Shown here: piece after piece, positions 2,676-39,984 of the stretch
How positions within the stretch are numbered: position 1 is the stretch's first letter
Layout of the letters: every line of letters starts with the position of its first letter
NCBI GenBank assembly: GCA_016218495.1
Contig: JACRDU010000072.1
Span: 1 to 40,448, forward strand
Direction of reading: 5' to 3'
Length of the DNA: 40,448 nucleotides
Source: Elusimicrobiota bacterium
Lineage (GTDB): Bacteria; Elusimicrobiota; Elusimicrobia; UBA1565
Notes under the pieces: model-generated
The model's database searches: none
What the model was told of the DNA's origin: nothing
What the model saw: only the letters and a program-made list of their open reading frames with translations
Made by a program: the position numbers and the translations under genes

Positions 2676-2987
2676 TCAGGCTTTGGGGGCGCAGCAGGGG
2701 CAGAGCGCGCGCAGGGCCTCGAAGGTGTAGATGCCCGAGCCGTGCCCGTCCGAGAACTGGAAGGCCACGGCGTAGTTCCCGACCAAGGTTGCCTTGCCGG
2801 CCTTGAGGTCGGCGGGCACGGATTCCGGGTCCAGGATGCGCCGTCCGGTGAACTCGTCGCGGCAGCCCGCGCAGCGGCATTCCTGGCGCAGGGTACGGAA
2901 GGAGTATTCGCTGACATGCCCGCCCTCCCAGCGGATGCGGAAGAACTCGTCGCGGACCTTCTCCAGCCTCTCGGGGGTGGGGAGCAT
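2676..2987 (-). CDS. DUF971 / GBBH-like N-terminal domain protein
   Basis: 103 residues, covering the whole small domain. Features match the DUF971 family (the N-terminal zinc-binding domain of gamma-butyrobetaine hydroxylase, found free in bacteria): an FRIRWEGGH start, a Cys pair in QECRCAGCRDE (about residues 35-45), a W/Y-rich beta core (GNYAVAFQFSDGHGSGIYTF) and a second Cys pair in CPCC near the end. The four cysteines probably bind one zinc or take part in Fe-S handling. Free-standing copies are often linked to Fe-S or Mrp contexts, but no such gene is next to it here. A TATAAT box ends exactly 6 bases before the ATG, predicting a leaderless transcript. Confidence 0.88.
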   Translation of the reverse strand: MLPTPERLEKVRDEFFRIRWEGGHVSEYSFRTLRQECRCAGCRDEFTGRRILDPESVPADLKAGKATLVGNYAVAFQFSDGHGSGIYTFEALRALCPCCAPKA

Positions 2988-2993
2988 GCCCCT

Positions 2994-2999
2994 ATTATA
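2994..2999 (-). promoter_or_regulatory. -10 box TATAAT, leaderless spacing
   Basis: Perfect TATAAT with a 6-base gap to the ATG of the DUF971 gene, so the A of ATG sits at the expected +1. Confidence 0.65.
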
Positions 3000-3096
3000 G
3001 GAAAGGATGTGACCACCCTAAGGCCCAGGAGGCGTTGGGCCGCTTGCCTCGGGGCGGCTGGGCCCTTCGCCCCTTCGGGCCGATCCGGTTCTCCGG

Positions 3097-3102
3097 TACC
3101 AT
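3097..3102 (+). promoter_or_regulatory. -10 box TACCAT, near-leaderless spacing
   Basis: TACCAT ends 7 bases before the ATG at 3110. It supports that start over the longer in-frame reading from 3035. Confidence 0.45.
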
Positions 3103-3109
3103 CCGAGTG

Positions 3110-6040
3110 ATGAAGGCCGCCCTCAACCGCGTCCTGGCCTTGGCCGTGGGGCTCACCACGGCCTTCCCCCCGTCGCTGTTCGCGCAGGTGGTCTCGGCGC
3201 CCGTGCGGGCCGGTAGCGTCGTCCAGGCCGTTCCGGCGCCTTTGGGCGCGCCCGCCCTGACCCCTTCGGCCGGAGCGTCCTTTTCCGCGCCGAATCTGGC
3301 CTCAGGCCTCCCGGCCGCCCCTTCCCTATTACCCTCTCCCGCCATCCAGGCTCCGTCCGCGGCCAAGGCCCTCCCCGCGGCCGTCGCCGCGGCCGGGATG
3401 CCTGTCGCCCGGACCGCCATCACCCCCGCCTCCGCGCGCGAAGGCCTGCGCACGGCGGTCAATGCGGTGGCGGGCGACGAGAAGGCGGGACGCGAGAAGC
3501 CGGGCCTCGCCGCCCTCGGCGCGGACGCCGAGGCCCCGCGTTCCGATGCTTCGGCCCAAGAGCAGAGCGCCTCGGCCGAGCGCTTCTTCAACCAGAAGGC
3601 CGGGATCCTCTTCGGCGTCTATGAGGCGGAGGACGTCTCCCCGCTGGCGGCCTTCGAGGCCGCCGCGGCGGGCAAGGGCCGCGGACGCAAGAAGGAGACC
3701 CCCCCGCCCCCGGACCCCAAGATCCCGGCGCGGACGCTGACGTTCAACGGGACCGAGTTCCCCTCGGTCGCCTTCCGTCCGGACCGTCCCGTCGGGCCCC
3801 TGATCGTCGCCGCCGTAAACGCCGCCAAGACCTCCATCGACATCGCCCTCTACGAGTTCCGCAACAAGGACATCCTGACGGCGCTGCGCGCGGCGAAGGC
3901 GCGCGGGGTGAAGATCCGGGTCATCGTGGACTTCGGGAACACCTTCCCGTCCAAGCGAGAGGGGTCGAGCTACTGGCCGAGCCGTTCCCTGGAGCTCCAG
4001 TCGATGATCTCGGAAGGCTTCGACGTCACCATCCTGCGCGGCACCGAGCGCTGGGGCATCGCCCACAACAAGCTGGCCGTCTTCGACGGCTCCTTCGGGC
4101 TCTTCGGCTCCTACAACTGGTCTTACACCTCGGAAGAGAACCACTTCGAGAACGCGGTCTTCACCGACGACAAGAGGCTCCTCGGCGGCATGCAGGCCTA
4201 CTGGGACTGGATGCGCTCGCTGAGCGTCCCGTTCGCCCAGGCGCGCGAGCGCGCCTGGCCGCAGACGGTCCCGACGCCCCCCAAGGACCCGGCCCCGTCC
4301 ATCGGGTTCAACGGCGAGGCCCTCCCGGCCTATGCGTTCTCTCCCGACGCATCCATCGAGGACCTGGTCGCGCGCGCGCTGGGCGCGGCCAAGAAGACCA
4401 TCGACGTCTCGATGTTCACGCTGACCTCGCCCAAGGTGGTGCGGGCCATCGCGGCCGCCAAGGCCCGGGGCGTGAAGGTCCGGGTGCTGGCCGACAAGTC
4501 CCAGTACGGCCAGGACTTCATGAAGAAGTTCGTCGACTGGCTGGCCTGGAACAAGATCCCGGTCAAGCTCCTGGCCGGTCCCAACGAGGACGGCCCGGAG
4601 TACGCCGAGAAGAACCATAACAAGCTGGCCATCCTCGACGGGCGCCTGGTCATGACCGGCTCGACGAACTGGACCAAGAGCGGCTTCGTGACGAACTTCG
4701 ACGGCCTCTATTTCCTGGACAACGCCAAGGACGCGGCGTCCTTCACGGCCTTCTTCGACGACATGTTCAAGGCCCGCGGCGCCGAGCGCGTCGTCCCGCC
4801 CGCCTCGGAGCCCGCGCTCCCCACCGACGAGGAGGTCCTCGAGGGCCTGCGCGGGACGCCGCAGCCCCTGCCTCCGGCCCCGACGTGGGGGCCGCTGCCC
4901 GAAGCGCGCCAGGTCGCCTTCAATGGGGAGACCCTGCCCTCGGCCGCCGTGCGGCCGGTCCACCCGGTCAAGGACATCCTGGTCAAGGCCATCGACGCCT
5001 CGAAGGAGTCCATCGAGCTGGCCCTCTACGAGTTCAACCTCGAGGACATCCTGGCGGCCCTCAAGCGCGCCAAAGCCCGGGGCGTGAAGGTCCGGGTCAT
5101 CATCGACTACAACAAGGCCTTCCCCAAGGGGCGCTACACCGACGGCGAGGAGCGCGAGCGCAACCCCAACGTCCAGGCCCTCTTCGACGAGTTCGACACG
5201 ACCGTCCTGCGCGGCACGCGCCTGCCCGGCATCATGCACAACAAGATCGCCATCTTCGACGGCAAGCTGGTCGAGTACGGCTCCTACAACTGGGCGTTCA
5301 CGGCCGAGAACCACCATTTCGAGCACATCCAGTTCACCGACGATGCCAAGCGCGTGGCCTTCTACCGCAAGGTCTGGGACTGGATGCGCACCTACTCCCA
5401 GCCGGAGAAGAAGGCCGAGGAGCACGACTGGGCCGGGGAGCGCCCGGCCGGGGCCCCGGTCGACGAGGACCTGGCCGTCGAGGTGAACGGCACGAAGCTC
5501 CCCCGGCAGGTCTTCTCGCCGCAGGGCTTGGTCGAGGACACGGTCGTCAAGGCCATCAGGGCGGCCAAGGTCTCGGTCGAGGTGGCGATGTTCAGCTTCT
5601 ACTCGGTGCGCATCGCCGAGGAGCTGCTGGCGGCCAAGCAGCGGGGCGTCAAGGTCAGCCTGGTGCTGGACCGGATGCAGTCGAAGCTCATGAAGCTCGA
5701 CGACTGGTTCGCCTACCACGACTTCGATGTGCGCATCCTGGGCGGCCCCAACCCCTACGACAACGTCTACTTCGAGAAGAACCACAACAAGTTCGTCCTG
5801 GTGGACGGCAAGGTCCTCGGCGCCGGCTCCTACAACTACACCTCCAACGCCGAGACGAACTCCTACGAGAACGTCAGCTTCACGTCCGACGCGGCCGACG
5901 TGGCGTTCTTCATGGCCTACTTCCGGATGCTCTTCGAGAACGGCTGGAAGCCGATGAAGCCCAAGGCCCCTCCGGAGGGCCTGCCCGCCGCCTCCGAGTT
6001 CTTCTCGCCCGAGCGCTTCGAAGAACTCGCCCGTCGATAA
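3110..6040 (+). CDS. Secreted protein with four phospholipase-D (HKD) domains
   Basis: 976 residues. A signal peptide (MKAALNRVLALAVGLTTAFP) is followed by an Ala/Pro-rich linker to about residue 205. Four PLD-like domains come next, each with H-x-K-x4-D: H319/K321/D326, H503/K505/D510, H710/K712/D717 and H892/K894/D899. Each is followed by a G-S-x-N-W/Y strand. All four domains keep H, K and D. Each begins with an FNG/VNG strand, and domains 1 and 3 resemble each other, as do 2 and 4. So a two-domain enzyme was duplicated. PLD enzymes need two HKD motifs per active site, so this chain may hold two. The substrate could be phospholipid, nucleic acid or another phosphodiester. The export signal favours an extracytoplasmic target. 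The start was chosen from the signal peptide and the -10 spacing. Confidence 0.9.
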   Translation: MKAALNRVLALAVGLTTAFPPSLFAQVVSAPVRAGSVVQAVPAPLGAPALTPSAGASFSAPNLASGLPAAPSLLPSPAIQAPSAAKALPAAVAAAGMPVARTAITPASAREGLRTAVNAVAGDEKAGREKPGLAALGADAEAPRSDASAQEQSASAERFFNQKAGILFGVYEAEDVSPLAAFEAAAAGKGRGRKKETPPPPDPKIPARTLTFNGTEFPSVAFRPDRPVGPLIVAAVNAAKTSIDIALYEFRNKDILTALRAAKARGVKIRVIVDFGNTFPSKREGSSYWPSRSLELQSMISEGFDVTILRGTERWGIAHNKLAVFDGSFGLFGSYNWSYTSEENHFENAVFTDDKRLLGGMQAYWDWMRSLSVPFAQARERAWPQTVPTPPKDPAPSIGFNGEALPAYAFSPDASIEDLVARALGAAKKTIDVSMFTLTSPKVVRAIAAAKARGVKVRVLADKSQYGQDFMKKFVDWLAWNKIPVKLLAGPNEDGPEYAEKNHNKLAILDGRLVMTGSTNWTKSGFVTNFDGLYFLDNAKDAASFTAFFDDMFKARGAERVVPPASEPALPTDEEVLEGLRGTPQPLPPAPTWGPLPEARQVAFNGETLPSAAVRPVHPVKDILVKAIDASKESIELALYEFNLEDILAALKRAKARGVKVRVIIDYNKAFPKGRYTDGEERERNPNVQALFDEFDTTVLRGTRLPGIMHNKIAIFDGKLVEYGSYNWAFTAENHHFEHIQFTDDAKRVAFYRKVWDWMRTYSQPEKKAEEHDWAGERPAGAPVDEDLAVEVNGTKLPRQVFSPQGLVEDTVVKAIRAAKVSVEVAMFSFYSVRIAEELLAAKQRGVKVSLVLDRMQSKLMKLDDWFAYHDFDVRILGGPNPYDNVYFEKNHNKFVLVDGKVLGAGSYNYTSNAETNSYENVSFTSDAADVAFFMAYFRMLFENGWKPMKPKAPPEGLPAASEFFSPERFEELARR

Positions 6041-6041
6041 C

Positions 6042-6050
6042 TGCTATCAT
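6042..6050 (+). promoter_or_regulatory. Extended -10 promoter (TGCTATCAT)
   Basis: TATCAT with upstream TGC, 2 bases after the preceding stop codon and 11 bases before the ATG at 6062. The predicted leader is about 5 bases. It would drive the five-gene operon 6062-9930. Confidence 0.5.
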
Positions 6051-6061
6051 CGGGTCTCAAG

Positions 6062-16444: not shown

Positions 16445-16474
16445 AAGACTCCTGATCGTTCCTTCGGATGCCGT

Positions 16475-16930
16475 TCAACCGGAGCGGGGAGCGGCTGAGC
16501 GGGACGGCCAAAGAGGCGCCGGTCGCTCAGGTGGGAGGCGCTCGGTCGGCGAGGTCGGGGTGAGGGGAGGCGCTGGACCGATGCCGCGGCGGCCCGGTGT
16601 ATGAGGTTTCCTTGAGCGAGGCCAGCAGGGGCGCAGGGGGGGGGAGGACGCGGCACTTGGAATCTGGGAAAGGGCTTGAACAGGCGCGCCGATTCCGGGG
16701 GTGTTCGTCTTGAGGGCGGGAGCCGAATCGGCCTGCTGGATTTCGTGGTGCGGCGCGCCGTCGTCATGTCCGTGTCCGTGCGTCATGCCCCCATGTTCAT
16801 GGGAGTGGGCGTCGGCGATGGCGTGGGAGGCCGCATGCGCGAGCGCGCCGAACTGCGGACCGGTCAGGGCCAGTCCGAGAGCAAAAGCCGCGGCGAGAGG
16901 CGTTCGAATCGGACGGCGGGCCCTGAGCAC
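16475..16930 (-). CDS. Exported His-rich small protein at the head of the metal-efflux operon
   Basis: 151 residues from a GTG. A signal peptide (RTPLAAAFALGLALTGPQFG, about residues 9-28) is followed by a His cluster (HSHEHGGMTHGHGHDDGAPH, about residues 42-61). The rest is Pro/Ser/Arg-rich and could be unstructured. The His cluster suggests binding of Zn, Co, Ni or Cu in the periplasm, as a chaperone or buffer for the pump encoded 30 bases downstream. Small first genes of this kind occur in czc/cus-type operons, but I do not recognise a named family. An extended -10 (TGTTAGGAT) ends 6 bases before the GTG. The second half has unusual composition, so its exact 3' part is less certain. Confidence 0.6.
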   Translation of the reverse strand: MLRARRPIRTPLAAAFALGLALTGPQFGALAHAASHAIADAHSHEHGGMTHGHGHDDGAPHHEIQQADSAPALKTNTPGIGAPVQALSQIPSAASSPPLRPCWPRSRKPHTPGRRGIGPAPPLTPTSPTERLPPERPAPLWPSRSAAPRSG

Positions 16931-16936
16931 GCGGGA

Positions 16937-16945
16937 ATCCTAACA
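16937..16945 (-). promoter_or_regulatory. Extended -10 promoter (TGTTAGGAT), leaderless spacing
   Basis: TAGGAT preceded by TGT, 6 bases before the GTG of the His-rich gene. It overlaps the TAG stop codon of the upstream membrane-protein gene (16940-16942). It would drive the metal-efflux operon separately from the genes upstream. Confidence 0.5.
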
Positions 16946-17347: not shown

Positions 17348-18570
17348 CCGAAAACCATGGATGCGAAGCTGACCGTGCCGCCCGCCGGGTCTTCGGCATG
17401 GCCCCAGTGCAGGAGGCGGCCCGAGGTCTTCGGGAACAGCGCCTTGTGCAGGCGCGAGAACGCGTAGAGGGCGCTGACCCCGCAGACGCGGCGGGCGTTG
17501 CCGTCCGCCTGGACCGAAGCGAGCCAGCCGGCGGGGTCCCGGGAGGACAGCAGGGCCAGCCCTTCCCGGTCCTGAGCCTCGACGCGGGCCAGCCACGGTC
17601 CGTCGACCGGCTTGTCGTCGCCGAAGCGCGGGCCGATGTGGGCCAGGTCGGCGCCGCATACGAGCAGGAGGCCGTCCTTGAGGGGTCCGAGGAGCTCGGC
17701 GAGCGCGTCCAGGGCCGACTCGGTCCGCGAGCCTGCGTCGGCACGGTCGAGGTCGCAGGAGGAGGCCAGGAGCGGCAGGATGGCCGTGCTGCCGCCGAGG
17801 CGGCGCCCGGCATACGCCAGCCATACGGCCTGGAACTCGGCCGAATGCTCGGAGCGGTGGACGAGCTCGTCGGCCCGGAGGTCGAAGGGCGCGGCCTCCT
17901 CCAGGTCCGCGGCCAGCCTTTCAGCCAGCGCCAGGGTCCCGAACGGGGTCTCGAAGCCCTTGGCCGCAAGGACCAAGGGCGTTCCCGGCGTGCGGTGGGC
18001 CACCCCTATGACGACGCAGAGGGGGGGCAGCGACGAACCCAGGAGGTCCCTGAACGCCCAGGCGTAGGCCGTCCCCCCGCGGTGGAAATCGATGTGGGGG
18101 GCAACTATCCCGGTCGGGCGGGCAGAGGAGCCGGGCGCGGGTGCGGGTCCGGGTCCGCCGGGACGCGTGAAGAACGCCCCCATCTCGGCCTCGAGCTCGC
18201 GCGGCTCCGCGGCATAGGAACGGCCGGCCAGCGCGGCGGGGCGTATGCGCGCCATTCGGAAGGCCGAGGCGGCGGCCCGGACCCGGCGGCGGAAACGCGG
18301 GGAGTCGAGCATCAGGGCCTCGTCGAGGCTCCGGGCGAAGGCCGCCACGCCGTCCGCGGACGCGGGGTGGCCGTGGCGGGCCAGGTCGGCCGCGACCTGG
18401 GCGGCGGTGCGCAGGCCGTCGAGGCGGGCGGCGACCTGCGCCTCGGCGGCGCTCAGCAGCACGAGCCTGTCGGTCCAGCCCTCCGGGTCGCGCAGGGCCA
18501 GCCAGGTGCGGCCGTCCTGGGCCAGCGGGAAGGCGTCGAGCGGGCGGAGCGCGGGCAGCTTCGCGGCCAC
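17344..18570 (-). CDS. MEMO-family protein (AmmeMemoRadiSam system protein B) with N-terminal extension
   Basis: 408 residues from a GTG. The C-terminal 290 residues carry the MEMO marks: GIVAPHIDFHRGG (about 154-166), HRSEHSAEFQAVWL (about 234-247), GADLAHIGPRFGD and RVCGVSALYAF. MEMO proteins share the fold of class III extradiol dioxygenases and sit in a conserved but poorly understood set with AMMECR1 and a radical-SAM enzyme. Neither partner is in this window. The first 100 residues resemble a small winged-helix PqqD-like domain (AQVAARLDGLRTAAQVAADL). A CATAAT box ends 6 bases before the GTG. The gene is divergent from mgtE with only 35 bases between start codons. Confidence 0.85.
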   Translation of the reverse strand: MAAKLPALRPLDAFPLAQDGRTWLALRDPEGWTDRLVLLSAAEAQVAARLDGLRTAAQVAADLARHGHPASADGVAAFARSLDEALMLDSPRFRRRVRAAASAFRMARIRPAALAGRSYAAEPRELEAEMGAFFTRPGGPGPAPAPGSSARPTGIVAPHIDFHRGGTAYAWAFRDLLGSSLPPLCVVIGVAHRTPGTPLVLAAKGFETPFGTLALAERLAADLEEAAPFDLRADELVHRSEHSAEFQAVWLAYAGRRLGGSTAILPLLASSCDLDRADAGSRTESALDALAELLGPLKDGLLLVCGADLAHIGPRFGDDKPVDGPWLARVEAQDREGLALLSSRDPAGWLASVQADGNARRVCGVSALYAFSRLHKALFPKTSGRLLHWGHAEDPAGGTVSFASMVFG

Positions 18571-18576
18571 GGGACG

Positions 18577-18582
18577 ATTATG
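18577..18582 (-). promoter_or_regulatory. -10 box CATAAT of the MEMO gene, leaderless spacing
   Basis: Six bases separate CATAAT from the GTG at 18570. Its -35 would have to lie at or inside the start of the divergent mgtE gene. Confidence 0.5.
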
Positions 18583-18593
18583 GCGTTTTTTCC

Positions 18594-18599
18594 TATGAT
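18594..18599 (+). promoter_or_regulatory. -10 box TATGAT of mgtE, leaderless spacing
   Basis: Six bases separate TATGAT from the ATG at 18606. No room exists for a Mg2+ riboswitch in the leader. Confidence 0.6.
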
Positions 18600-18605
18600 G
18601 TCGGC

Positions 18606-19977: not shown

Positions 19978-20403
19978 TCAGGCGGCGCCGCAGCACTTCT
20001 TGTACTTCTTGCCGGACTTGCAGGGGCAGGCGTCGTTGCGGCCGACCTCGGGGTCCGTCTTCACGAAGGTGCCGGGCTTCTGTTCGGCGGACGCGGCGGA
20101 GGCGTTGAACTTCCCCGCAATGATGTCCTTCTGGTGCTTGTCGACCCAGGCCTTCACGGCGGCCTGGTCCTTGACGTTGACGCCGTCCTTCTGCATCGCG
20201 ACGGCGACGGCCTTCATCTGGGCCAGGAAGGCGGGGTTCTTCCAGTAGCGGAAGAACTTGCCCATCATCCCCGACTTCTCGAGTTCCTTCAGGTCGGGCG
20301 TGCCGCCGCCGAGCAGGGCGGCTTCGGCGGCCTTCTGAGCGTCATCGCTCTTGGGCGCGCCGGTGAGCTTCTCTTTGATCTTGGCGAAAGGGTTCCAGGA
20401 CAT
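19978..20403 (-). CDS. SEC-C motif protein
   Basis: 141 residues. A mostly helical, Lys/Ala-rich body ends in a SEC-C zinc motif, GRNDACPCKSGKKYKKCCG, very close to that at the SecA C-terminus, which binds zinc and SecB. The N-terminus (MSWNPFAKIKEKL) is amphipathic. The middle contains KELEKSGMMGKFFRYWKNP. Free-standing SEC-C proteins are widespread and may bind ribosomes or SecB-like chaperones; the role here is unknown. The start was chosen because TGCTACCCT ends 6 bases before this ATG. A longer frame upstream has no support. It is divergent from the toxin-antitoxin pair. Confidence 0.8.
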   Translation of the reverse strand: MSWNPFAKIKEKLTGAPKSDDAQKAAEAALLGGGTPDLKELEKSGMMGKFFRYWKNPAFLAQMKAVAVAMQKDGVNVKDQAAVKAWVDKHQKDIIAGKFNASAASAEQKPGTFVKTDPEVGRNDACPCKSGKKYKKCCGAA

Positions 20404-20409: not shown

Positions 20410-20418
20410 AGGGTAGCA
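20410..20418 (-). promoter_or_regulatory. Extended -10 promoter (TGCTACCCT), leaderless spacing
   Basis: TACCCT with upstream TGC, 6 bases before the ATG of the SEC-C gene. Confidence 0.45.
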
Positions 20419-20461: not shown

Positions 20462-20507
20462 AAGTGGGAAATCCCACCTTGACAAAAATCCCACTTTCGT
20501 CTATACT
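20462..20507 (+). promoter_or_regulatory. Toxin-antitoxin promoter with operator repeats
   Basis: This is the strongest sigma70 promoter seen: TTGACA (20479-20484), 17-base spacer, TATACT (20502-20507), then 5 bases to the ATG. A palindrome GTGGGA-AA-TCCCAC (20464-20477) abuts the -35. AAATCCCAC occurs twice as a direct repeat (20469 and 20486), 17 bp apart, the second copy inside the -35/-10 spacer. AAGTGGGA and TCCCACTT also form an outer inverted repeat. The placement fits repression by the antitoxin or the toxin-antitoxin complex. Confidence 0.75.
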
Positions 20508-25961: not shown

Positions 25962-25967
25962 TATCCT
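25962..25967 (+). promoter_or_regulatory. -10 box TATCCT, leaderless spacing
   Basis: Six bases separate TATCCT from the ATG at 25974. It faces away from the OPT promoter in an 80-base divergent region. Confidence 0.55.
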
Positions 25968-25973: not shown

Positions 25974-26417
25974 ATGCCCCGCAAGCTGACGGCCCTGCTC
26001 ATTGGCTACCTCCTCGCCATGCTCCCCCAGATGGTGCTGGGCACCGTCTTCGGCGAGACGCTGGGCATCGTGCGCGACCTCACGCCAGCGCCGGACCTGG
26101 TCCTGACGGCGGCCGCGGCCCTGGGCGGGCTTCTCATCGTCGCGGCTTCGGGGTTCGTGATGGGCTTCTCGTTCTGGGCGGGGACGGCGGAGAGCTGGAA
26201 GGCCTCGGGCGTCTGGGCGCTGGCGGGCGGCCTCGCGGCCTCCATCCTGGAGAACCCCCGGCTGCCCGCCTCCCCGCTCCTCTTCGTCCTGGGGACCGCC
26301 GTCCGGGGAGCCGGGGCGTTCTGGGGCGCGTGGTGGGGGGACCGTCACAAGGACGACCAGAGGGTCGAGGCGGTCCAGGGCTTCATCTTCGGCGTCATCC
26401 CGTTCCCGCTGGCCTGA
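25974..26417 (+). CDS. Small integral membrane protein of unknown function
   Basis: 147 residues with four membrane helices: KLTALLIGYLLAMLPQMVLG, LVLTAAAALGGLLIVAASGF with VMGFSFWAG, WALAGGLAASILEN and LLFVLGTAVRGAGAFWGAWW, followed by a charged DRHKDDQ segment and a hydrophobic end (FIFGVIPFPLA). I do not recognise a family. It is transcribed away from the OPT transporter and has its own leaderless-type promoter. No partner gene follows on the same strand, because the next gene is convergent. Confidence 0.7.
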   Translation: MPRKLTALLIGYLLAMLPQMVLGTVFGETLGIVRDLTPAPDLVLTAAAALGGLLIVAASGFVMGFSFWAGTAESWKASGVWALAGGLAASILENPRLPASPLLFVLGTAVRGAGAFWGAWWGDRHKDDQRVEAVQGFIFGVIPFPLA

Positions 26418-26578: not shown

Positions 26579-27094
26579 CGCCAGGAGCTCCGACTTGGAC
26601 TCCCAGGTCTCCCCGTCGACGCTGATGCGGGAGAGGTCTCCGCGCACCGGCTTGGAGCAGGACGAATAGACGTCGCATTCCCACTTGCGAGAGGCGATTC
26701 CGACCGGCCGCTCCTCGCAGGCCATGTCTTCGACCTCGGCGCCGGCCCAGCCTGCGCGCAGGCAGAGCCGCGCCAGGTAGGCTTGGGCGGCCGCGCGGGT
26801 CTGGTCGCGATAGTTCCCCTTGAGGATGTTCCACGCCGACCCGTCCTCGGCGGGCTCGCTGACCCAGACGGTGAGCTGGCGCGGCGAGCGGAGGCTGGAA
26901 TCGTCCCGGCCGGGTTCGGCGGCGGGGGGCGGGGCGGGGAACTCGGGGCGGCTGACCAGGTAATAGTCCGTCAAAGGCCGTTCGATCCGCGCCGACGGGC
27001 CTATGGCGGGCACCGGAAGGTCAAGGGCTCCGGCCGAGGCGGCGGGGCCGGCGAGGAGCAGCAGCAGGGAAAGCGCGGGGGGAATCTGGACCAT
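26486..27094 (-). CDS. Secreted Cys-rich repeat protein, apparently frameshifted near its C-terminus
   Basis: 202 residues as it now reads. A signal peptide (MVQIPPALSLLLLLAGPAAS) precedes a Pro-rich linker to about residue 70. A first repeat follows (about 98-147) with C111, C126, C140 and C146 and the block SRKWECDVYSSCS. From about residue 174 the frame turns into low-complexity Ala/Ser/Gly/Arg and stops at 26486, while a matching second repeat continues in another frame to 26436. So the annotated end is probably an artefact or a real inactivating indel. The start is fixed by TATCAT ending 6 bases before the ATG. The function is unknown; the cysteines probably form disulfides in the periplasm or outside the cell. 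Confidence 0.7.
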   Translation of the reverse strand: MVQIPPALSLLLLLAGPAASAGALDLPVPAIGPSARIERPLTDYYLVSRPEFPAPPPAAEPGRDDSSLRSPRQLTVWVSEPAEDGSAWNILKGNYRDQTRAAAQAYLARLCLRAGWAGAEVEDMACEERPVGIASRKWECDVYSSCSKPVRGDLSRISVDGETWESKSELLARVWPASTGSANAGGAPGSSSIARLAAARRR

Positions 27095-27100: not shown

Positions 27101-27106
27101 ATGATA
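27101..27106 (-). promoter_or_regulatory. -10 box TATCAT, leaderless spacing
   Basis: Six bases separate TATCAT from the ATG at 27094. It supports that start over upstream in-frame ATGs. Confidence 0.55.
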
Positions 27107-27240: not shown

Positions 27241-27246
27241 CATCCT
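27241..27246 (+). promoter_or_regulatory. -10-like box CATCCT, leaderless spacing
   Basis: CATCCT ends 6 bases before the ATG at 27253. It is a weaker match to the -10 pattern (first T absent), but the position is the usual one in this window. Confidence 0.35.
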
Positions 27247-27252: not shown

Positions 27253-28293
27253 ATGAAGACCTCGATCGCCCTGCTGTCGGTCGCCTTGGCCGTCCCCGGC
27301 GCGGCTGTGGAGAATCCCTCGGCGCTGTCGGCCCTCAGGTCTGCCGCCGGCGTCCATGCCCCGGCCGCCGTCCCAGGGTTGGGCGGCGGGGGACCCATCG
27401 CCGCCCCCGCCGGCGCGCCGGGCGGGGGAGTGGACCTGTCGGGGCAGTTCCCCACGGGCTCGCGCGACCAGGGCAACGTGGGGGCCTGCCATGCCTTCGC
27501 GTCCATCGGGCTCCTTGAAGCGGCCTATTTCAGGAAGTACGGCGAGCACGCCGTCTTCTCGGACGCCGACCTCTTCCTGCGCAACACCGTCCTCAACGGC
27601 AACATCTACAGCGGCAGCCTGTTCGAGCCCGGCTACGCGTGGACCGGGAGGCCGGAGCTAAAGGAGGGCGGCTCGCCGAGCACCCTGCTGGCCATCGGCG
27701 ACATGGAGTTCGCCATCAAGAACGGCGTGGCCACGACCCCGCAGTACTCCGCCTTCGTCGACCGCTATCGGCAGTTCCGGGAGGCCGAGCAGCGCACGCT
27801 GGAGGACATCGAACGGCAGCGCAGGCGCGACCCCTGGTACGTCCGCCTCCTCTATAACCCGCGCACGCACTGGGCGCGGATGCAGCGCAGCCCCCTCAAT
27901 CAGCGGATCCTGCAGAACTACCTGATGGGCAACGACCAGACCCTCGACGCCCAGCGCGAGGAGAGCCGCCGCAAGCTGTCCGGGTTCAAGGTGGCCAAGA
28001 GCCTCTACATCACCCTGCCGTCCTCGTTCAGCCGGCCGGAGAAAGAATGCCGCCGGGACGGGGCCGCGAGGACGGCCGCCGTCCTATCCGAGCTGAACGC
28101 CGGGCGGTCGGTGGGGCTGAGCTACTTCACCGACGGCAACTGGGGCAGCCATGTGCTGCTCATCACGGGCTACCGGCCCGACGGCGACGACATCGTCTTC
28201 AAGACCCGCAACTCCTGGGGCGCCGGCGGCAACTTCGACATGTCCCCGAAGGACATGTGCAAGGTGCACGGCATCTTCAGCGTCCGCGAGTAG
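27253..28293 (+). CDS. Secreted papain-like (C1) cysteine peptidase
   Basis: 346 residues. The signal peptide is MKTSIALLSVALAVPGAAV, followed by an Ala/Pro/Gly linker to about residue 60. The peptidase domain shows the oxyanion Gln and nucleophile in RDQGNVGACHAFAS (Q73, C79), the catalytic His in NWGSHVLLITGY (H300) and the Asn in TRNSWG (N320). The Trp that normally follows the catalytic Cys is His here. A long charged helical insert (about 165-245) separates the two halves of the domain. No propeptide of the usual kind is seen. It is probably exported and active on proteins. The start at 27253 was chosen for the signal peptide; an ATG at 27217 adds only a charged extension. Confidence 0.83.
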   Translation: MKTSIALLSVALAVPGAAVENPSALSALRSAAGVHAPAAVPGLGGGGPIAAPAGAPGGGVDLSGQFPTGSRDQGNVGACHAFASIGLLEAAYFRKYGEHAVFSDADLFLRNTVLNGNIYSGSLFEPGYAWTGRPELKEGGSPSTLLAIGDMEFAIKNGVATTPQYSAFVDRYRQFREAEQRTLEDIERQRRRDPWYVRLLYNPRTHWARMQRSPLNQRILQNYLMGNDQTLDAQREESRRKLSGFKVAKSLYITLPSSFSRPEKECRRDGAARTAAVLSELNAGRSVGLSYFTDGNWGSHVLLITGYRPDGDDIVFKTRNSWGAGGNFDMSPKDMCKVHGIFSVRE

Positions 28294-29136: not shown

Positions 29137-29145
29137 TGCTAGACT
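29137..29145 (+). promoter_or_regulatory. Extended -10 promoter (TGCTAGACT), leaderless spacing
   Basis: TAGACT with upstream TGC ends 6 bases before the ATG at 29152. It drives the two glycoside hydrolase genes. Confidence 0.55.
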
Positions 29146-29151
29146 CCCGGG

Positions 29152-31200
29152 ATGAGAATCCCTCTTCTCCTCGCCTTCCTTCTCGCTTCCTTACCGGCCT
29201 TCGCCGCCATGCCCAAGGCGGAGGTGGAGCGCCGCGTCCAAGACCTCCTCGGCAAGATGACCCTGGAAGAGAAGCTGGGGCAGCTCCAGCAGCTCGACGG
29301 CTCGGCCGCGGGCGACCACTCGCCCGAGCTCCTCGAGCTGGCGCGCAAGGGCCGCCTAGGCTCGACCTTGAACGTGCGCGGGGCCAAGCGCGTCAACGAG
29401 CTCCAGCGCGCCGCCCTGCAGTCGCGCCTCAAGATCCCCGTCCTCTTCGCCTTCGACGTCATCCACGGCTACCGGACCATCTTCCCGATCCCCTTGGGCG
29501 AGGCGGCGGCCTGGGACCCGGCGGGGGCGGAGCGCACGGCCGCCATCGCCGCGGCCGAGGCCGCGGCGGCGGGCGTCCGGTGGACCTTCGCCCCGATGGT
29601 GGACATCGCGCGCGACCCGCGCTGGGGCCGCGTGGCCGAGGGAGCGGGCGAGGACGTCCACCTGGGGTCGGTCCTGGCGGCGGCCAGGGTCAGGGGCTTC
29701 CAGGGCGCCGACCCCTCGGCTCCCGACAAGGTCCTGGCCTGCGCGAAGCACTGGGTGGGTTACGGAGCCGCCGAAGGAGGCCGCGACTACAACACCACCG
29801 ACATCTCCGAGGAGCGCCTGCGCGGCGTCTACCTGCCGCCCTTCAAGGCCGCGGTGGACGCGGGCGTGGAGACCTTCATGAGCGCCTTCAACGACTTGAA
29901 CGGCGTGCCGTCGTCGGCCAACCGCCGGACCCTGACCGGCATCCTGCGCGGCGAATGGGGCTTCGACGGCCTGGTGGTCAGCGACTACACCTCTGTGGCC
30001 GAGCTGGTCAACCACGGCTACGCCGCCGACGGGGGCGACGCGGCGCGCAAGGCGCTGTCGGCCGGGGTCGACATGGAGATGGTCAGCCGGCTCTACAACG
30101 AGCACGGGAAGACCCTGGCCTCCGCCGAGGTGGACGAGGCCGTGCGCCGCGTCCTGCGCGTGAAGCTGCGGGCGGGCATCTTCGAGCGTCCCTTCGCCGA
30201 CGAGAAGGCCGAGACGGTCCTGCTCTCCGCCCCCTTCCGCGATGAAGCCCGCCTCTCGGCAGCCCGCTCGATGGTCCTCTTGGAGAACCGCGGCGTGCTC
30301 CCGTTCTCCAAGGACATGGAGTCCCTCGCCGTCCTGGGAGCCTTGGCCGACTCGAGGGCCGACCTGCTCGGTTCCTGGACCGGCGACGGCCGTGCGCAGG
30401 ACGCCGCGACCATCCGCGAAGCCTTGAGGGAGGCCCTGCCGAAGACCCGCCTGACGGATTCGCTCGACGACGCGGCCGCGGCGGTCGTGGTCGTCGGGGA
30501 GACCTTCGATGTGAGCGGCGAGGCCGCCTCGCGCAGCGACATCGGCCTGCCGTCCGGCCAGCTGGAGCTCGTGCGCAGGGCGCATGAGTCCGGCAAGCCC
30601 TACGCCGTCGTCCTCATCACCGGCCGGCCGCTGGCCGTCCCCTGGCTGGCGGAGAACGCCCGGGCCCTGCTCCTGGCCTGGCAGCCCGGCACCGAGGGCG
30701 CCCGCGCCGTCGCCGACATCCTCTTGGGCGACGCCGTCCCCGGGGGGAAGCTCCCCGCCAGCTTCCCGCGCTCCGTGGGCCAGGTGCCGGTCTACTACGC
30801 GCACAAGAACTCCGGGCGGCCCTACGACGCCGCCAGCAAGTACACGACCAAGTACCTGGACCTGCCGAACACGCCGCTGTATCCGTTCGGCTACGGGCTG
30901 AGCTACTCCTCCTTCGAGCTCTCCGGCCTCGCGGCCTCGGACGCGGCGGTCTCGGTCGATGTGAAGAACACGGGCGCGCGCGCCGGCGACGAGGTGGTGC
31001 AGGTCTATGTCCGGGGTCCGGCGGGGGGCGCCCTCACCCGGCCGGTGCGCGAGCTCCAGGGCTTCCAGCGCGTCACCCTCGCCCCGGGAGAGAAGCGCCG
31101 CCTGGACTTCGCGCTGCGCCCCGACGCGCCGGGCCCGTGGCAGGTCTTCGTGGGGACGAGCTCCGTGGGCGGCCTGACGGGCTCCTTCGTGCACAAGTGA
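29152..31200 (+). CDS. bglX-like: GH3 beta-glucosidase, exported
   Basis: 682 residues with a signal peptide (MRIPLLLAFLLASLPAFAA). The GH3 barrel shows LGQLQQLDG, FDVIHGYRTIFPIPLG, DIARDPRWGR, AKHWVGYGAAEGGRDYN and the catalytic nucleophile Asp278 in GFDGLVVSDYTS. A GH3 C-terminal sandwich domain (about 370-560) and a fibronectin-III-like domain (about 595-680) follow. The layout matches periplasmic BglX, which removes terminal beta-linked glucose. Its stop overlaps the start of a GH144-like gene (GTGA). If that partner is an endo-beta-1,2-glucanase, this enzyme would finish the sophoro-oligosaccharides. Confidence 0.93.
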   Translation: MRIPLLLAFLLASLPAFAAMPKAEVERRVQDLLGKMTLEEKLGQLQQLDGSAAGDHSPELLELARKGRLGSTLNVRGAKRVNELQRAALQSRLKIPVLFAFDVIHGYRTIFPIPLGEAAAWDPAGAERTAAIAAAEAAAAGVRWTFAPMVDIARDPRWGRVAEGAGEDVHLGSVLAAARVRGFQGADPSAPDKVLACAKHWVGYGAAEGGRDYNTTDISEERLRGVYLPPFKAAVDAGVETFMSAFNDLNGVPSSANRRTLTGILRGEWGFDGLVVSDYTSVAELVNHGYAADGGDAARKALSAGVDMEMVSRLYNEHGKTLASAEVDEAVRRVLRVKLRAGIFERPFADEKAETVLLSAPFRDEARLSAARSMVLLENRGVLPFSKDMESLAVLGALADSRADLLGSWTGDGRAQDAATIREALREALPKTRLTDSLDDAAAAVVVVGETFDVSGEAASRSDIGLPSGQLELVRRAHESGKPYAVVLITGRPLAVPWLAENARALLLAWQPGTEGARAVADILLGDAVPGGKLPASFPRSVGQVPVYYAHKNSGRPYDAASKYTTKYLDLPNTPLYPFGYGLSYSSFELSGLAASDAAVSVDVKNTGARAGDEVVQVYVRGPAGGALTRPVRELQGFQRVTLAPGEKRRLDFALRPDAPGPWQVFVGTSSVGGLTGSFVHK

Positions 31201-34375: not shown

Positions 34376-35528
34376 GGACCGCCCCCTCCATCGTCAGCCC
34401 CGGGCCGAAACCCAGCGCCGCCACCGGGCCGCGCGAGCGGAGCAAGGCGCGCTCGAGCACGAAGAAGATCGTCGCGCTCGACATGTTGCCGTAGCCGCGC
34501 AGGACCTCGAGCGAGGCGGAGACCTGAGAGTCGTCTAATCCCAAGGCTTTCTGGACGCCCGCCACGATCCCGTGCCCTCCGGGATGCACGGCCCATCCCG
34601 CCGCCTCCGAGCGCTGCAGGCCGGCGGCCTCGAGGAGCTCCGAGGCGAACGGGGCGGCGGCCTTGCTCAGGGAAGCGGGGATGCGGCGGTCGAGGCGCAT
34701 CTCGAATCCCGAATCCCCGATGCGCCAGGACATCTGCTCGAGGCTGTCCGGGCTGACGCGGCAGTGCGTGGCGGCGAGGTCGGCGATGCCTCCGTCCCGG
34801 CTGGCGCGGCCGGCGTATACCGCCGCGGCGGCGCCGTCGGAGAAGAGCGCGTTGGCGAACTGGAGCCCGGGCGACGCGCCCTTCTGGAAGTGCAGGGTGC
34901 ACAGCTCCACCGAGACCTGGAGGACGACGGCCTCCGGCCAGGCGCGCACGATGTCGTCGGCCGCCCTCAGGCCGTTGATGCCCGCGTAGCAGCCCATGAA
35001 GCCGATGAGCGTGCGCTTGACGGTGGGCGGCAGGCCGAGCCGTCCCATGAGCAGGATTTCCGGGCCGGGCGCGAAGAACCCCGTACAGGTCGTTATCAGC
35101 AGGTGCGTGACCTCCGCGGGCGACACTCCCGATGCCGCCAGTGCGCGGCGGGCCGCCGCTTCGGCCAAGGCGACGCTCTCGGCCTCATAGGCCTTCATGC
35201 GCGCGGCGGTGCCGGGGAACGGGTCCAGGGCCCAGTTCTTCGGGAAGAAGGAGAAGTCCGCAGGGTCCTCTTGGCAGAAATCCGGCAGGACGCTGTGGCG
35301 GGTCTCGATCCGGCTGGCCTTGTAGATCCGTTCGAGGCGGCCCAGGGTTTCCTCAAGGGCGGGGTCACCGGCGTTGGCCCGGGCGACGCGGCTCGTGAAG
35401 CCGAGAGCCCGGGACTGGGTGAGGCGATGCCGGCCGACGGCGGTTCCGATTCCGTAGAGGCGCGTCGCGGGCGGCCTGGAGCGCCTGCGTGCGGGAGCGG
35501 GCAAGAGGGTCGGAGAATCGAGGCTCAT
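34362..35528 (-). CDS. Type III polyketide synthase (chalcone/stilbene synthase family)
   Basis: 388 residues, full length. The catalytic triad is intact: C180 in IGFMGCYAGINGLRAA, H315 in WAVHPGGHGIV and N348 in LRGYGNMSSAT. The C-terminal GFGPGLTMEGAVL motif is also typical. Such homodimers extend a starter acyl-CoA with malonyl-CoA and cyclise it, giving alkylresorcinols, alkylpyrones or similar phenolic lipids in bacteria. The two downstream genes (methyltransferase, FAD enzyme) would tailor it. The first 20 residues are Pro/Arg-rich and may be a poorly conserved extension. TGCTATGAT ends 8 bases before the ATG. Confidence 0.94.
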   Translation of the reverse strand: MSLDSPTLLPAPARRRSRPPATRLYGIGTAVGRHRLTQSRALGFTSRVARANAGDPALEETLGRLERIYKASRIETRHSVLPDFCQEDPADFSFFPKNWALDPFPGTAARMKAYEAESVALAEAAARRALAASGVSPAEVTHLLITTCTGFFAPGPEILLMGRLGLPPTVKRTLIGFMGCYAGINGLRAADDIVRAWPEAVVLQVSVELCTLHFQKGASPGLQFANALFSDGAAAAVYAGRASRDGGIADLAATHCRVSPDSLEQMSWRIGDSGFEMRLDRRIPASLSKAAAPFASELLEAAGLQRSEAAGWAVHPGGHGIVAGVQKALGLDDSQVSASLEVLRGYGNMSSATIFFVLERALLRSRGPVAALGFGPGLTMEGAVLAAG

Positions 35529-35536
35529 GCGTGAGA

Positions 35537-35545
35537 ATCATAGCA
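35537..35545 (-). promoter_or_regulatory. Extended -10 promoter (TGCTATGAT)
   Basis: TATGAT with upstream TGC ends 8 bases before the ATG of the type III PKS gene, predicting a leader of 0-1 base. Confidence 0.55.
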
Positions 35546-35787: not shown

Positions 35788-35824
35788 ACCGGCCGCGATG
35801 GGCGTGAAGCGTCCCTAGCCCCCC

Positions 35825-36316: not shown

Positions 36317-36317
36317 G

Positions 36318-37418: not shown

Positions 37419-38923
37419 TATTTCCCCATGGCGGCGGTCAGCAGGTCTTCCTGCGAGGCCCCGCGCCCGAATTCGCCGGTCAGACGCCCTTCGCGCATCA
37501 TAAGGATCCGGTCGGACATGCCGATGAGCTCGGGCAGCTCGCTGGAGACGAGCAGCACGGCCTTGCCGTCGGCGCTCAGGCGGTTGATGACCTCGTAGAT
37601 CTCGACCTTCGCCCCGACGTCCACGCCGCGCGTGGGCTCGTCGAGGAGGACGACGCCGGGGCCGGTCATCAGCACGCGGCCCAGGACGACCTTCTGCTGG
37701 TTCCCGCCCGAGAGCCCGCCCACGCGCGCCGAGAGGCCGGGGGCCTTCACCCGCAGGGAGCCGAACTGGGCCGCGTTGTCCTCGGCCTCGGCGGCGAGGT
37801 CCAGCAGGGCGCGCCCGCTCAGGCGCGAGAGGCTCGAGAGCGAAAGGTTGAAGCCGACGGCCTGGTCGAGGAAGAGCCCGAACCGCCGCCTGTCCTCGCT
37901 GACCAGGGCCAGGCCCTTGGCCAGCCGCTCGGGCGGCGCCCCGGGAGGCAGGGGGGCGCCGTCGAGGAGGACTTCGCCGCCGACGCGCACGCCCCAGGCG
38001 CCGAAGAGGTGCATCAGGAGCTCGGTGCGCCCCGCGCCCATCAGCCCGCCCAGGCCGACGACCTCGCCGGCGCGCACGCTCAGCGAGACGTCCTTGAGGA
38101 AGGGGGGGCGGCCGGGCGCGGGGGCGACGGAGAGGGAGCGGAACTCCAGCCGGGGACGGCCCGGGTGGGCGGCGCGGCGCGGGAAGAGCTCGGTCAGCGC
38201 GCGGCCGACCATGTGGCGGATGACCGTCTCGGGGCCGGCCTCGGCGGCCGTCAGCGTGGCGACGCTGGCCCCGTCGCGCAGGACGGTGACGCGGTCGGCC
38301 AGGGCGAAGACCTCCTCGAGGCGATGGGAGATGTAGACCAGCCCCATCCCCCGCTGGCGCAGGTCCCGGAGGATGTCCATGAGGCGGCCGGCTTCCGAAG
38401 CGGTCAGCGCCGCCGTCGGCTCGTCGAGTATGAGGACCTTGGACTCCTTGCGCAGGGCCTTGAGGATCTCCAGGAGCTGCTTGACCCCCGTGCCGAGCTC
38501 CCGTACCGGCAGGTCCGGGTCTATCGACAGGGAGAAGCGCCCGAGCAGGGCCTTCGCCGCCGAGCGCATGGAGGGGTAGTCGATCAGCGGGCCGCGGCGG
38601 GGCTCGTCCCCCAGGAAGAGGTTCTCCGCCACGCTCATCTCGGGGACCAGGGCCAGCTCCTGGCAGATGGCCGCCACGCCGGCGCGCTCGGCCGCGCGCA
38701 CGCTGGCGAAGGAGGCCGGCCGCCCGCCGACGAGGAGCTCGCCCTCGTAGGACCCGGCCGGATGCACCCCCGAGAGGACCTTGATGAGGGTGGACTTGCC
38801 GGCCCCGTTCTCGCCGCACAGCGCATGAAGCTCGCCGGCGCGCAGGTCGAAGCTGACCCCCGAGAGGGCGACGACCCCCGGGAAGCGCTTGACGACGCCG
38901 CGCGCCTCGAGCAGCGGCGTCAC
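37418..38923 (-). CDS. xylG-like: ABC sugar transporter ATPase with two nucleotide-binding domains (XylG/RbsA family)
   Basis: 501 residues with a duplicated ATPase. Domain 1 has Walker A GENGAGKST and Walker B ILDEPTAAL, but its signature is LGTGVKQLLE rather than the usual GxQQ form. Domain 2 has a degenerate Walker A (GLMGAGRTE), a perfect signature LSGGNQQKV and Walker B LLDEPTRGVD. This asymmetry is normal for carbohydrate-uptake (CUT2) ATPases. It energises the XylH-like permease. The GTG start overlaps the stop of the binding-protein gene (GTGA). Confidence 0.93.
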   Translation of the reverse strand: MTPLLEARGVVKRFPGVVALSGVSFDLRAGELHALCGENGAGKSTLIKVLSGVHPAGSYEGELLVGGRPASFASVRAAERAGVAAICQELALVPEMSVAENLFLGDEPRRGPLIDYPSMRSAAKALLGRFSLSIDPDLPVRELGTGVKQLLEILKALRKESKVLILDEPTAALTASEAGRLMDILRDLRQRGMGLVYISHRLEEVFALADRVTVLRDGASVATLTAAEAGPETVIRHMVGRALTELFPRRAAHPGRPRLEFRSLSVAPAPGRPPFLKDVSLSVRAGEVVGLGGLMGAGRTELLMHLFGAWGVRVGGEVLLDGAPLPPGAPPERLAKGLALVSEDRRRFGLFLDQAVGFNLSLSSLSRLSGRALLDLAAEAEDNAAQFGSLRVKAPGLSARVGGLSGGNQQKVVLGRVLMTGPGVVLLDEPTRGVDVGAKVEIYEVINRLSADGKAVLLVSSELPELIGMSDRILMMREGRLTGEFGRGASQEDLLTAAMGK

Positions 38924-39984
38924 TTGCGCTTGGGGCGGCGCGACTCGGGCACGCCGCGGTAGACCTCGTCGAAGGGGTGGTAGCCGTCGGCGACCACGGT
39001 GTCGAGCAGGTTGCCGGAGTCGACGGCCGTGACCGCCAGCAGCACCGCGGGGACCTTGCCGGCCCCGTTGTCCACCTCGGCCTTCGCCACCACGGGGCGG
39101 CGCCGGGCCAGGCGCACGGCGGCGTCGGCGGCCGCGCCGGCCTCGAGCGGGAGCGGCTTGTAGATGGTGGCGGCCTGCAGCCCGGCGGCGATGCGCTGGC
39201 AGGCGGCCAGCTCCGCGTCCTGGCCTATGACGGTCACCTTCCCGGCCAGCCCCTCCTCGCTCAGGGCCTGGATGGCGCCGCCGGCGGTGCCGTCGTTGGC
39301 GGCCAGCACGGCGTCGATGGTCGGCCCCAGGCGGGTCAGGGCGGCGTTCATGATCTTCTTGGCGTTCTCGGGCTTCCAGTTCTCGGCCCAGTCCTCGTGG
39401 ACGAGCTCGAGCCGGCCGGCCTTGATGAGGGGGGCCAGCACCTTGTCCTGGCCCTCCTTGAGGAAGAAGGAGTTGTTGTCGGTCTTGGCGCCGTGGATGC
39501 GCACGACGCGCGCGCGCCTGGAGCCGAGGCGCTCCACCAGGGCCTTGGCCTGCATCTCCCCGATGGCCACGGCGTCGAAGGCCACGTATAGGTCGAGCTC
39601 GACCCCCGTGATGAGGCGGTCGTAGGAGATGACCGGGACGCCGGCGTCGTGGGCCAGGCGCACGGCCTTGGCCATGGCCGCCCCGTTGTGCGGCACGATG
39701 ACGAGGGAGTCCACCCCGCGGCTCAGCAGCGCCTCCACGTCCTGGATCTGGCGGGTGTCGTCGGAGTTGGCGGCCTGCACCAGGACGTCGGCGCCCAGGC
39801 CTTCGGCCGCCTTCACGAAGAGGTCGCGGTCGTGCTGCCAGCGCTCCTCCTTCAAGGTGTCCAGGGAGAGGCCGACCAAGGGGCGCTTGCGGGCCGCCGA
39901 GGCGGTCCCGGAGCGGGAGAGGGTGAGTCCGATGCCGATGCTGAGCGCGAGGGAGGCGAAGACGAGGGCGAGTCTCTGGGTCAT
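38920..39984 (-). CDS. xylF-like: Periplasmic sugar-binding protein (XylF-like)
   Basis: 354 residues with a signal peptide (LALVFASLALSIGIGLTLS). It is a periplasmic-binding-protein type I fold of the D-xylose type: VGLSLDTLKEERWQHDRD, QAANSDDTRQIQDVEALLSR, GAKTDNNSFFLKEGQD, NDGTAGGAIQAL and GQDAELAACQRI all match XylF-style patterns. It delivers an aldopentose or related sugar to the XylG/XylH-like transporter. It is the first gene of the operon, with TGCTAGAAT ending 7 bases before the ATG. No sugar-metabolism or regulator gene of the xylose pathway lies nearby, so the sugar is not certain. Confidence 0.9.
   Translation of the reverse strand: MTQRLALVFASLALSIGIGLTLSRSGTASAARKRPLVGLSLDTLKEERWQHDRDLFVKAAEGLGADVLVQAANSDDTRQIQDVEALLSRGVDSLVIVPHNGAAMAKAVRLAHDAGVPVISYDRLITGVELDLYVAFDAVAIGEMQAKALVERLGSRRARVVRIHGAKTDNNSFFLKEGQDKVLAPLIKAGRLELVHEDWAENWKPENAKKIMNAALTRLGPTIDAVLAANDGTAGGAIQALSEEGLAGKVTVIGQDAELAACQRIAAGLQAATIYKPLPLEAGAAADAAVRLARRRPVVAKAEVDNGAGKVPAVLLAVTAVDSGNLLDTVVADGYHPFDEVYRGVPESRRPKRK

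What the first reader, a model, noticed from the sequence alone, without database searches (positions are those of the whole stretch)
2987..39984. Widespread leaderless-type promoters: -10 box ending 5-8 bases before the start codon
At 2987, 3110, 16930, 18570, 18606, 20403, 20513, 25974, 27094, 27253, 29152, 35528 and 39984 a -10-like box ends 5-8 bases before ATG or GTG, most often exactly 6. That places +1 on the first base of the start codon. Genes inside operons lack this and use overlaps or a Shine-Dalgarno (15218, 16444). Leaderless genes of this type are well known in Deinococcus-Thermus and Actinobacteria. A dense occurrence in what looks like another Gram-negative-type lineage would be notable.
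Basis: partly seen in the sequence, partly recalled or inferred. Interest (0 to 1): 0.7.

Follow-up and report, generated by a model that had tools for sequence, protein, structure and literature searches.

The report
Leaderless promoters across an Elusimicrobiota class
In this uncultured bacterium, about a quarter of the genes that head a transcript carry their promoter so close to the start codon that the messenger RNA should begin at the first letter of the gene; this way of starting genes is known from other bacteria, and here it appears to mark one class of the phylum Elusimicrobiota and to be missing from the others that were sampled.

Summary
Eleven of 13 listed sites carry TANNNT 5-8 bases before the start, two carry CANNNT; nine of 13 have a gap of exactly 6. 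One site (16930) heads a doubtful ORF. In 943 kb of the same genome, with starts chosen by codon usage alone, 74 of 316 transcript-heading genes have TANNNT at gap 5-8, against 9.7 in shuffles, with a sharp peak at 6. Unsupervised motif search recovers TATAAT there, with TG and a weak TTG -35. Boxed genes rarely have Shine-Dalgarno motifs and none starts with TTG. MgtE keeps the box in 16 of 18 genomes, the own one included. The organism is an Elusimicrobiota (nearest named relative GWA2_69_24). Whole-genome counts show the signature in its order and in 40 of 49 genomes of other orders of its class, but in 0 of 63 genomes of other classes, Endomicrobium proavitum included. Best explanation: sigma-70-type promoters giving leaderless mRNAs, beside Shine-Dalgarno genes. 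This is a known kind of system in a phylum for which my searches found no report. A by-product: divergent genes 20-42 bp apart with back-to-back leaderless promoters, such as 18570/18606. No transcript ends were measured.

The parts
2994..2999 (-). -10 box TATAAT, gap 6 to ATG at 2987 (GBBH-like N-terminal domain protein)
3097..3102 (+). -10 box TACCAT, gap 7 to ATG at 3110 (PLD-like domain protein)
16937..16942 (-). -10-like box TAGGAT, gap 6 to GTG at 16930; the ORF is doubtful
   Evidence: coding score -45.5, signal-peptide-like N terminus
18571..18605 (.). 35-bp divergent leaderless promoter pair between GTG 18570 (Memo-like) and ATG 18606 (MgtE)
   Evidence: the pair is kept in G002, G003 and G006, not in G001
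18577..18582 (-). -10 box CATAAT, gap 6 to GTG at 18570
18594..18599 (+). -10 box TATGAT, gap 6 to ATG at 18606; TANNNT at gap 5-8 in 16 of 18 MgtE loci, this one included
20410..20415 (-). -10 box TACCCT, gap 6 to ATG at 20403 (SEC-C motif protein)
20502..20507 (+). -10 box TATACT, gap 5 to ATG at 20513, with TTGACA upstream at a 17-bp spacer
25962..25967 (+). -10 box TATCCT, gap 6 to ATG at 25974
27101..27106 (-). -10 box TATCAT, gap 6 to ATG at 27094
27241..27246 (+). weak -10-like box CATCCT, gap 6 to ATG at 27253
29140..29145 (+). -10 box TAGACT, gap 6 to ATG at 29152 (glycosyl hydrolase family 3 with signal-peptide-like N terminus)
35537..35542 (-). -10 box TATGAT, gap 8 to ATG at 35528 (chalcone/stilbene synthase-like, type III polyketide synthase)
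39992..39997 (-). -10 box TAGAAT, gap 7 to ATG at 39984 (periplasmic binding protein ahead of transporter permease genes)

Best explanation
The boxes are the -10 elements of ordinary sigma-70-type promoters (TGnTAtaaT with a weak TTG -35 at a 17-bp spacer). RNA polymerase starts about 7 bases downstream of the last T, which is the first base of the ATG or GTG. The mRNA then has no leader, and the ribosome recognises the 5'-terminal start codon without Shine-Dalgarno pairing. Genes further down an operon, and the remaining first genes, use Shine-Dalgarno or other initiation. Shown by sequence: the box, its spacing, its concentration on first genes, the scarcity of Shine-Dalgarno words and absence of TTG starts among boxed genes, conservation of the box at MgtE, an intact anti-Shine-Dalgarno in four family relatives, and the taxonomic range. 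Inferred: the transcription start and leaderless translation. About 23% of first genes have the strict box; the motif model suggests about 30%. The mode is shared by the order and by most sampled genomes of the class, but not by the other sampled classes of the phylum.
For: Peak at gap 6 with codon-only starts. Unsupervised motif search finds TATAAT with 28% of its position weight at gap 6. Extended -10 TG and weak TTG at a 17-bp spacer. Pooled over eight genomes of the order: Shine-Dalgarno words in 6 of 126 boxed against 112 of 410 unboxed first genes, p 6e-9; TTG starts 0 of 126 against 39 of 410. MgtE: 16 of 18 loci at gap 5-8, 13 of 18 at exactly 6. Order relatives 52 of 220 first genes against a baseline of 10.8; Proteobacteria 5 of 206 against 6.0. 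Whole-genome TATAATN6ATG over the N20-29 mean: medians 5.28 (7 order genomes), 2.67 (49 in other orders of the class), 0.96 (63 in other classes); still peaked against N9-13 in families f1, f2, f5, f6. Anti-Shine-Dalgarno GGATCACCTCC in 4 of 4 family relatives with a full-length 16S match.
Against: No 5' ends mapped and no expression data. In the gene-level sample of four genomes from other orders of the class there is no overall excess at gap 5-8 (16 of 152 against 18.0), although gap 6 alone has 9; the class-wide claim therefore rests on pattern counts. Family f8, and genera g32 and g34 of f6, lack the signal, and f10 is not significant. Among first-gene orthologue pairs within the order, boxed own genes have a box in 7 of 14 relatives' genes and unboxed ones in 6 of 30, p 0.07, so single-gene conservation beyond MgtE is weak. 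The named-Actinobacteria positive control was uninformative (1 of 19 first genes; 0 and 1 pattern matches for L139 and L143). The 16S 3' end of the window's own genome is missing.
Confidence: 0.9

Rival explanations
1. The box is an AT-rich, weakly structured translation-initiation signal near the start codon (non-Shine-Dalgarno initiation), not a promoter; transcription starts further upstream.
For: Some bacteria use AT-rich non-Shine-Dalgarno signals (passage in PMC9581028). Boxed genes rarely have Shine-Dalgarno words.
Against: The motif is a specific TATAAT with TG and a weak TTG at a 17-bp spacer. It has a preferred spacing of 6 and is rare upstream of operon-internal genes (16 of 328), which would also need translation signals.
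Confidence: 0.04
2. Very short leaders (1-10 bases) rather than exactly none: the start site varies around the start codon.
For: Gaps of 5, 7, 8 and 9 also occur (10, 16, 9 and 7 of 316).
Against: Gap 6 dominates (41 of 316), and a Shine-Dalgarno site with its usual spacing would hardly fit in such a leader. Functionally this is still leaderless-type initiation.
Confidence: 0.2
3. Chance or artefact of start-codon choice in a GC-rich genome.
For: One of the 13 listed sites is a doubtful ORF, and two boxes are not TANNNT.
Against: Shuffles and 4339 internal ATGs (0-6 per position) show no such peak, nor do Proteobacteria; operon-internal genes show only a small one (11 of 328 at gap 6). MgtE loci keep box and spacing. 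Starts were chosen without upstream sequence.
Confidence: 0.01

Closest known systems
Leaderless (TA-led) genes of Deinococcus-Thermus: the -10 motif adjacent to ORFs (PMC12340547; sections 7 and 11 and passages read)
   Same: TANNNT about 6-7 bp before the ORF in nearly a third of D. radiodurans genes, beside a GGAG ribosome-binding class; conserved between species.
   Different: There it is backed by transcriptome and reporter data and found in all analysed species of the phylum; here it is sequence only, in one class of a phylum, with a TAtaaT consensus where TACACT is the commonest form in D. radiodurans.
TA-led genes in the survey of 953 bacterial genomes (PMC3160421; abstract, section 7 and passages read)
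   Same: Same TANNNT signal at the same place, mixed with SD-led genes; in high-GC groups the middle positions are little conserved.
   Different: Elusimicrobiota is not among the named groups and the word does not occur in the text; one genome there is 'unclassified', which I could not identify.
Bidirectional promoters of E. coli (PMC12825309; start of the abstract and passages read)
   Same: Two opposed promoters in a few tens of base pairs, so that one polymerase excludes the other.
   Different: There the commonest distances between start sites are 18, 10 and 23 bp, with a shared -10. Here both predicted start sites coincide with start codons 20-42 bp apart, and in six of nine two-sided pairs the -10s lie side by side.

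Membership tests
Bacterial leaderless (TA-led) gene architecture | -10-type TANNNT about 10-12 bp before the start codon, above background | tested here: met
   74 of 316 against 9.7 shuffled; order relatives 52 of 220 against 10.8
Bacterial leaderless (TA-led) gene architecture | Concentrated on genes that head a transcription unit | tested here: met
   74 of 316 first genes against 16 of 328 operon-internal genes
Bacterial leaderless (TA-led) gene architecture | No Shine-Dalgarno enrichment in boxed genes | tested here: met
   6 of 126, below the upstream control of 16 of 126
Bacterial leaderless (TA-led) gene architecture | Mapped 5' end at the start codon | not testable with these tools
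   No RNA data; uncultured organism
Bacterial leaderless (TA-led) gene architecture | Evolutionary conservation of box and spacing | tested here: inconclusive
   Clear for MgtE, 16 of 18; weak for other pairs, 7 of 14 against 6 of 30, p 0.07
Shine-Dalgarno-led initiation for the remaining genes | Intact anti-Shine-Dalgarno in 16S rRNA | tested here: met
   GGATCACCTCC in L264-L267, 4 of 4; 3' end missing in the own genome
Shine-Dalgarno-led initiation for the remaining genes | Shine-Dalgarno words enriched upstream of unboxed and operon-internal genes | tested here: met
   112 of 410 (control 49) and 226 of 533 (control 72), pooled over the order
Bidirectional promoter (E. coli type) | Opposed promoters within a few tens of bp | tested here: met
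   9 of 16 close divergent pairs in the order carry boxes on both sides, two of the 18 boxes being looser variants; sequence only
Bidirectional promoter (E. coli type) | Shared symmetrical -10 element with start sites usually 18, 10 or 23 bp apart | tested here: not met
   Six of the nine two-sided pairs have side-by-side -10s with 33-42 bp between start codons; L188, L190 (G001) and L199 (G005) come near, at 20-26 bp

The most novel reading that the evidence does not exclude
Leaderless transcription is a class-level trait of Elusimicrobiota, present in most sampled families of one class and missing from Endomicrobia and the other sampled classes. In this lineage it has also produced leaderless bidirectional promoters: 20-42 bp between two divergent start codons holds both promoters, both start sites and both translation starts, so that one bound polymerase must exclude the other and no room is left for leaders or separate operators.
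Probability: 0.45. Interest if true: 0.55.

Novelty: new member of a known kind. Interest (0 to 1): 0.42.

Why it matters
Leaderless initiation has been argued to be ancestral (PMC3160421). A sharp presence/absence boundary inside one phylum that has cultured members would let gain or loss be tested. In practice, gene finders that assume Shine-Dalgarno sites will misplace starts in these genomes, and the boxes can be used to correct them. The divergent pairs are a compact natural test of promoter exclusion.

Tried and rejected
GC content as the sole cause: high-GC order members have the signal, but so do genomes of family f5 by pattern counts (its one sampled member, G063, has 46% GC), while Proteobacteria pools of 57 and 63% GC do not. 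G012 (50% GC) and its congener G008 are weak (ratio about 2), so a GC influence is not fully excluded.

Loss of IF3 as a correlate: the IF3 C-terminal domain was found in 117 of 119 genomes of the phylum, with and without the signal. No link.

The reversed-pattern control built into the search tool was set aside because promoters and start codons are both enriched near gene starts; I used other spacings (N20-29, N9-13) instead. The N9-13 ratio was computed for the class and for f11 and f12 only.

Named outgroups (24 genomes): most lie near or below 1 or have too few matches. Highest: GWA2_69_24 20 against 44 (ratio 4.5), the record labelled Actinomycetota Ch49 28 against 101 (2.8), an Acidobacteria record 10 against 47 (2.1), a Fuerstiella record 15 against 86 (1.7). 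G188 (2 against 6) is too small to read.

In the comparison of close divergent pairs (16 of 156 in the order against 1 of 80, p 0.007) I left out the Actinobacteria control (1 of 5 pairs), since that phylum is known for leaderless genes. L150-L167 are 18 of the 30 MgtE loci; the other 12 are fragments or distant paralogues. From, whose output was cut in the middle, I used the tallies at its end.

Searches that gave nothing used: (leaderless with divergent promoters; leaderless in candidate phyla).
Full report
What was checked. Each of the 13 listed sites was read in the window (box coordinates verified). Eleven carry TANNNT ending 5-8 bases before the start, two (18570, 27253) carry CANNNT, and nine of the 13 have a gap of exactly 6. 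A home-made gene finder that scores codons only, and sees nothing upstream of the start, was trained on the window plus 58 other stretches of the same genome (943,385 bases, 780 genes). It chose 11 of the 13 starts by itself. At 16930 it found no gene: the ORF scores -45.5, though its N terminus looks like a signal peptide.

Is it more than chance? I called 'first' those genes whose upstream neighbour is divergent or at least 60 bases away; 714 genes with a known neighbour and 60 bases of upstream sequence were classed. Of 316 first genes, 74 have TANNNT at gap 5-8; 100 dinucleotide shuffles gave 9.7 +- 2.6, maximum 16. At gaps 5, 6, 7 and 8 the counts are 10, 41, 16 and 9. Operon-internal genes have 16 of 328 (11 at gap 6) and intermediate ones 17 of 70. 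Upstream of 4339 internal in-frame ATGs no position exceeds 6. An expectation-maximisation search without any preset motif found T-A-T-A-A-T upstream of first genes, with 57% of genes carrying the motif somewhere in 40 bases and about 55% of its position weight at gaps 5-9, that is about 30% of first genes; operon-internal genes instead gave a purine-rich, GGAGG-like motif.

Anatomy. Aligned on the box, the 74 boxed genes show T 0.51 and G 0.66 at the extended -10 positions and a weak TTG (0.38, 0.36, 0.42) at a 17-bp spacer. A last T of the -10 six bases before the start codon puts the usual start site on the first base of that codon; this step is established knowledge of sigma-70 promoters applied here, not a measurement. 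Over eight genomes of the order, Shine-Dalgarno words occur in 6 of 126 boxed first genes (16 in a control stretch further up), 112 of 410 unboxed first genes (control 49) and 226 of 533 operon-internal genes (control 72); TTG starts in 0 of 126 and 39 of 410. In the own genome alone TTG is 0 of 74 against 23 of 242, Fisher p 0.003. All four family relatives with a full-length 16S match have an intact anti-Shine-Dalgarno at the 3' end; the own 16S gene is cut off at a contig edge. So two modes coexist.

Which organism. CarB of this genome is 74% identical to that of Elusimicrobia bacterium GWA2_69_24, and the next hit has 62%. The window is contig 36 of a 4.15-Mb, 165-contig assembly of about 70% G+C.

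Conservation. MgtE (start 18606) was followed into relatives: in 18 loci from 18 genomes, the own one included, spanning 38-100% protein identity, the alignments begin at residue 1, and 16 of 18 have TANNNT at gap 5-8, 13 at exactly 6; the other two are at 9 and 10. Letter shuffles gave a mean of 1.1, maximum 4. Of the four other family genomes with an MgtE match, three keep the Memo-like gene divergent beside it: G003 with 33 bp between start codons and boxes at gap 6 on both sides; G002 with 32 bp and boxes at 7 and 6, read by eye; G006 with 22-26 bp depending on the Memo start, a good box on the MgtE side and only a loose one on the other, read by eye. In G001 no Memo-like match was found in the 20-kb stretch that holds MgtE. 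For other genes conservation is weak: within the order, boxed first genes have a boxed orthologue in 7 of 14 pairs and unboxed ones in 6 of 30, Fisher p 0.07; one of the seven misses (MgtE in G001) is a start-choice error.

Range. Gene-level samples: order relatives 52 of 220 first genes against a baseline of 10.8; four genomes of other orders of the class 16 of 152 against 18.0; four genomes of other classes 14 of 157 against 21.6; Proteobacteria 5 of 206 against 6.0. Whole-genome counts are more powerful: TATAATN6ATG against the mean per spacing of N20-29 in 119 genomes gives a median of 5.28 in 7 order genomes, 2.67 in 49 genomes of other orders of the class and 0.96 in 63 genomes of other classes (Mann-Whitney p 3e-18). 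After correction for 119 tests, 5 of 7, 40 of 49 and 0 of 63 are significant. The excess is a peak and not a shoulder: against N9-13, f1 5.65, f2 2.95, f5 3.01, f6 1.93, but f8 0.74, f11 1.02, f12 0.89. G079, in f11, has a single contig of 1,588,979 bases, the published length of Endomicrobium proavitum (PMC4505116, whole text read), so f11 is its family. Genomes of one family are not independent (33 of the 49 are f5), so the per-family ratios are the fairer reading: f1, f2, f5, f6 and f9 clearly positive, f7 weaker (one genome, p 0.003), f10 not significant, f8 negative, two genera of f6 near 1, and 13 families of other classes all between 0.64 and 1.31.

Divergent pairs. In the order, 16 of 156 divergent gene pairs have start codons 0-45 bp apart, against 1 of 80 in the other genomes compared (p 0.007). 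Nine of the 16 carry -10 boxes at the right gap on both sides, two of the 18 boxes being looser variants, and 14 on at least one side; the nine have 20-42 bp between start codons. In G001 one pair has 25 bp between start codons around a near-palindrome of two overlapping TATAAT boxes. If the boxes act as proposed, one bound polymerase blocks the other; that is inference, by analogy with E. coli bidirectional promoters (PMC12825309, start of the abstract and passages).

Relation to what is known. The same architecture is described and tested in Deinococcus-Thermus (PMC12340547) and catalogued in many bacterial groups (PMC3160421). My searches for Elusimicrobiota with leaderless genes or mapped start sites found no paper on the subject in the open-access library: the two hits do not appear to treat it (passages of PMC10783764, which lists the phylum in a table of anti-Shine-Dalgarno types, were read; the other was seen in the listing only), the three were seen in the listing only, and one search had none. 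So this is a new member of a known kind; the class boundary and the compact divergent promoters are the parts worth following.

Noticed in passing
window 20464-20477: An inverted repeat GTGGGA-AA-TCCCAC lies just upstream of the TTGACA of the 20513 promoter, with a further ATCCCAC inside the spacer at 20488; it looks like an operator for the 100-residue protein of 20513 and the small gene at 20819.
   Followed up: no
window 16445-16939: A 495-base stretch without predicted gene; the ORF starting at GTG 16930 begins like a secreted histidine-rich protein and then turns into non-coding-like sequence, which suggests a frameshift, a pseudogene or an assembly error ahead of the RND efflux genes.
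   Followed up: partly
L188 15051-15077 and L190 625-652 (G001): Divergent genes with 25 and 26 bp between start codons, whose two -10 boxes overlap or lie one base apart as near-palindromes.
   Followed up: partly
L016 upstream of 10976, L049 upstream of 19700, L023 upstream of 9194: Three of the 74 boxed promoters carry the word TATATTG at the identical place, 27 to 21 bases before the -10 box, so that its TTG is the -35; a possible shared regulator site.
   Followed up: partly
G109 and G153 (family f8): Family f8 lies in the signal-positive class but shows no excess at gap 6, a candidate secondary loss.
   Followed up: no
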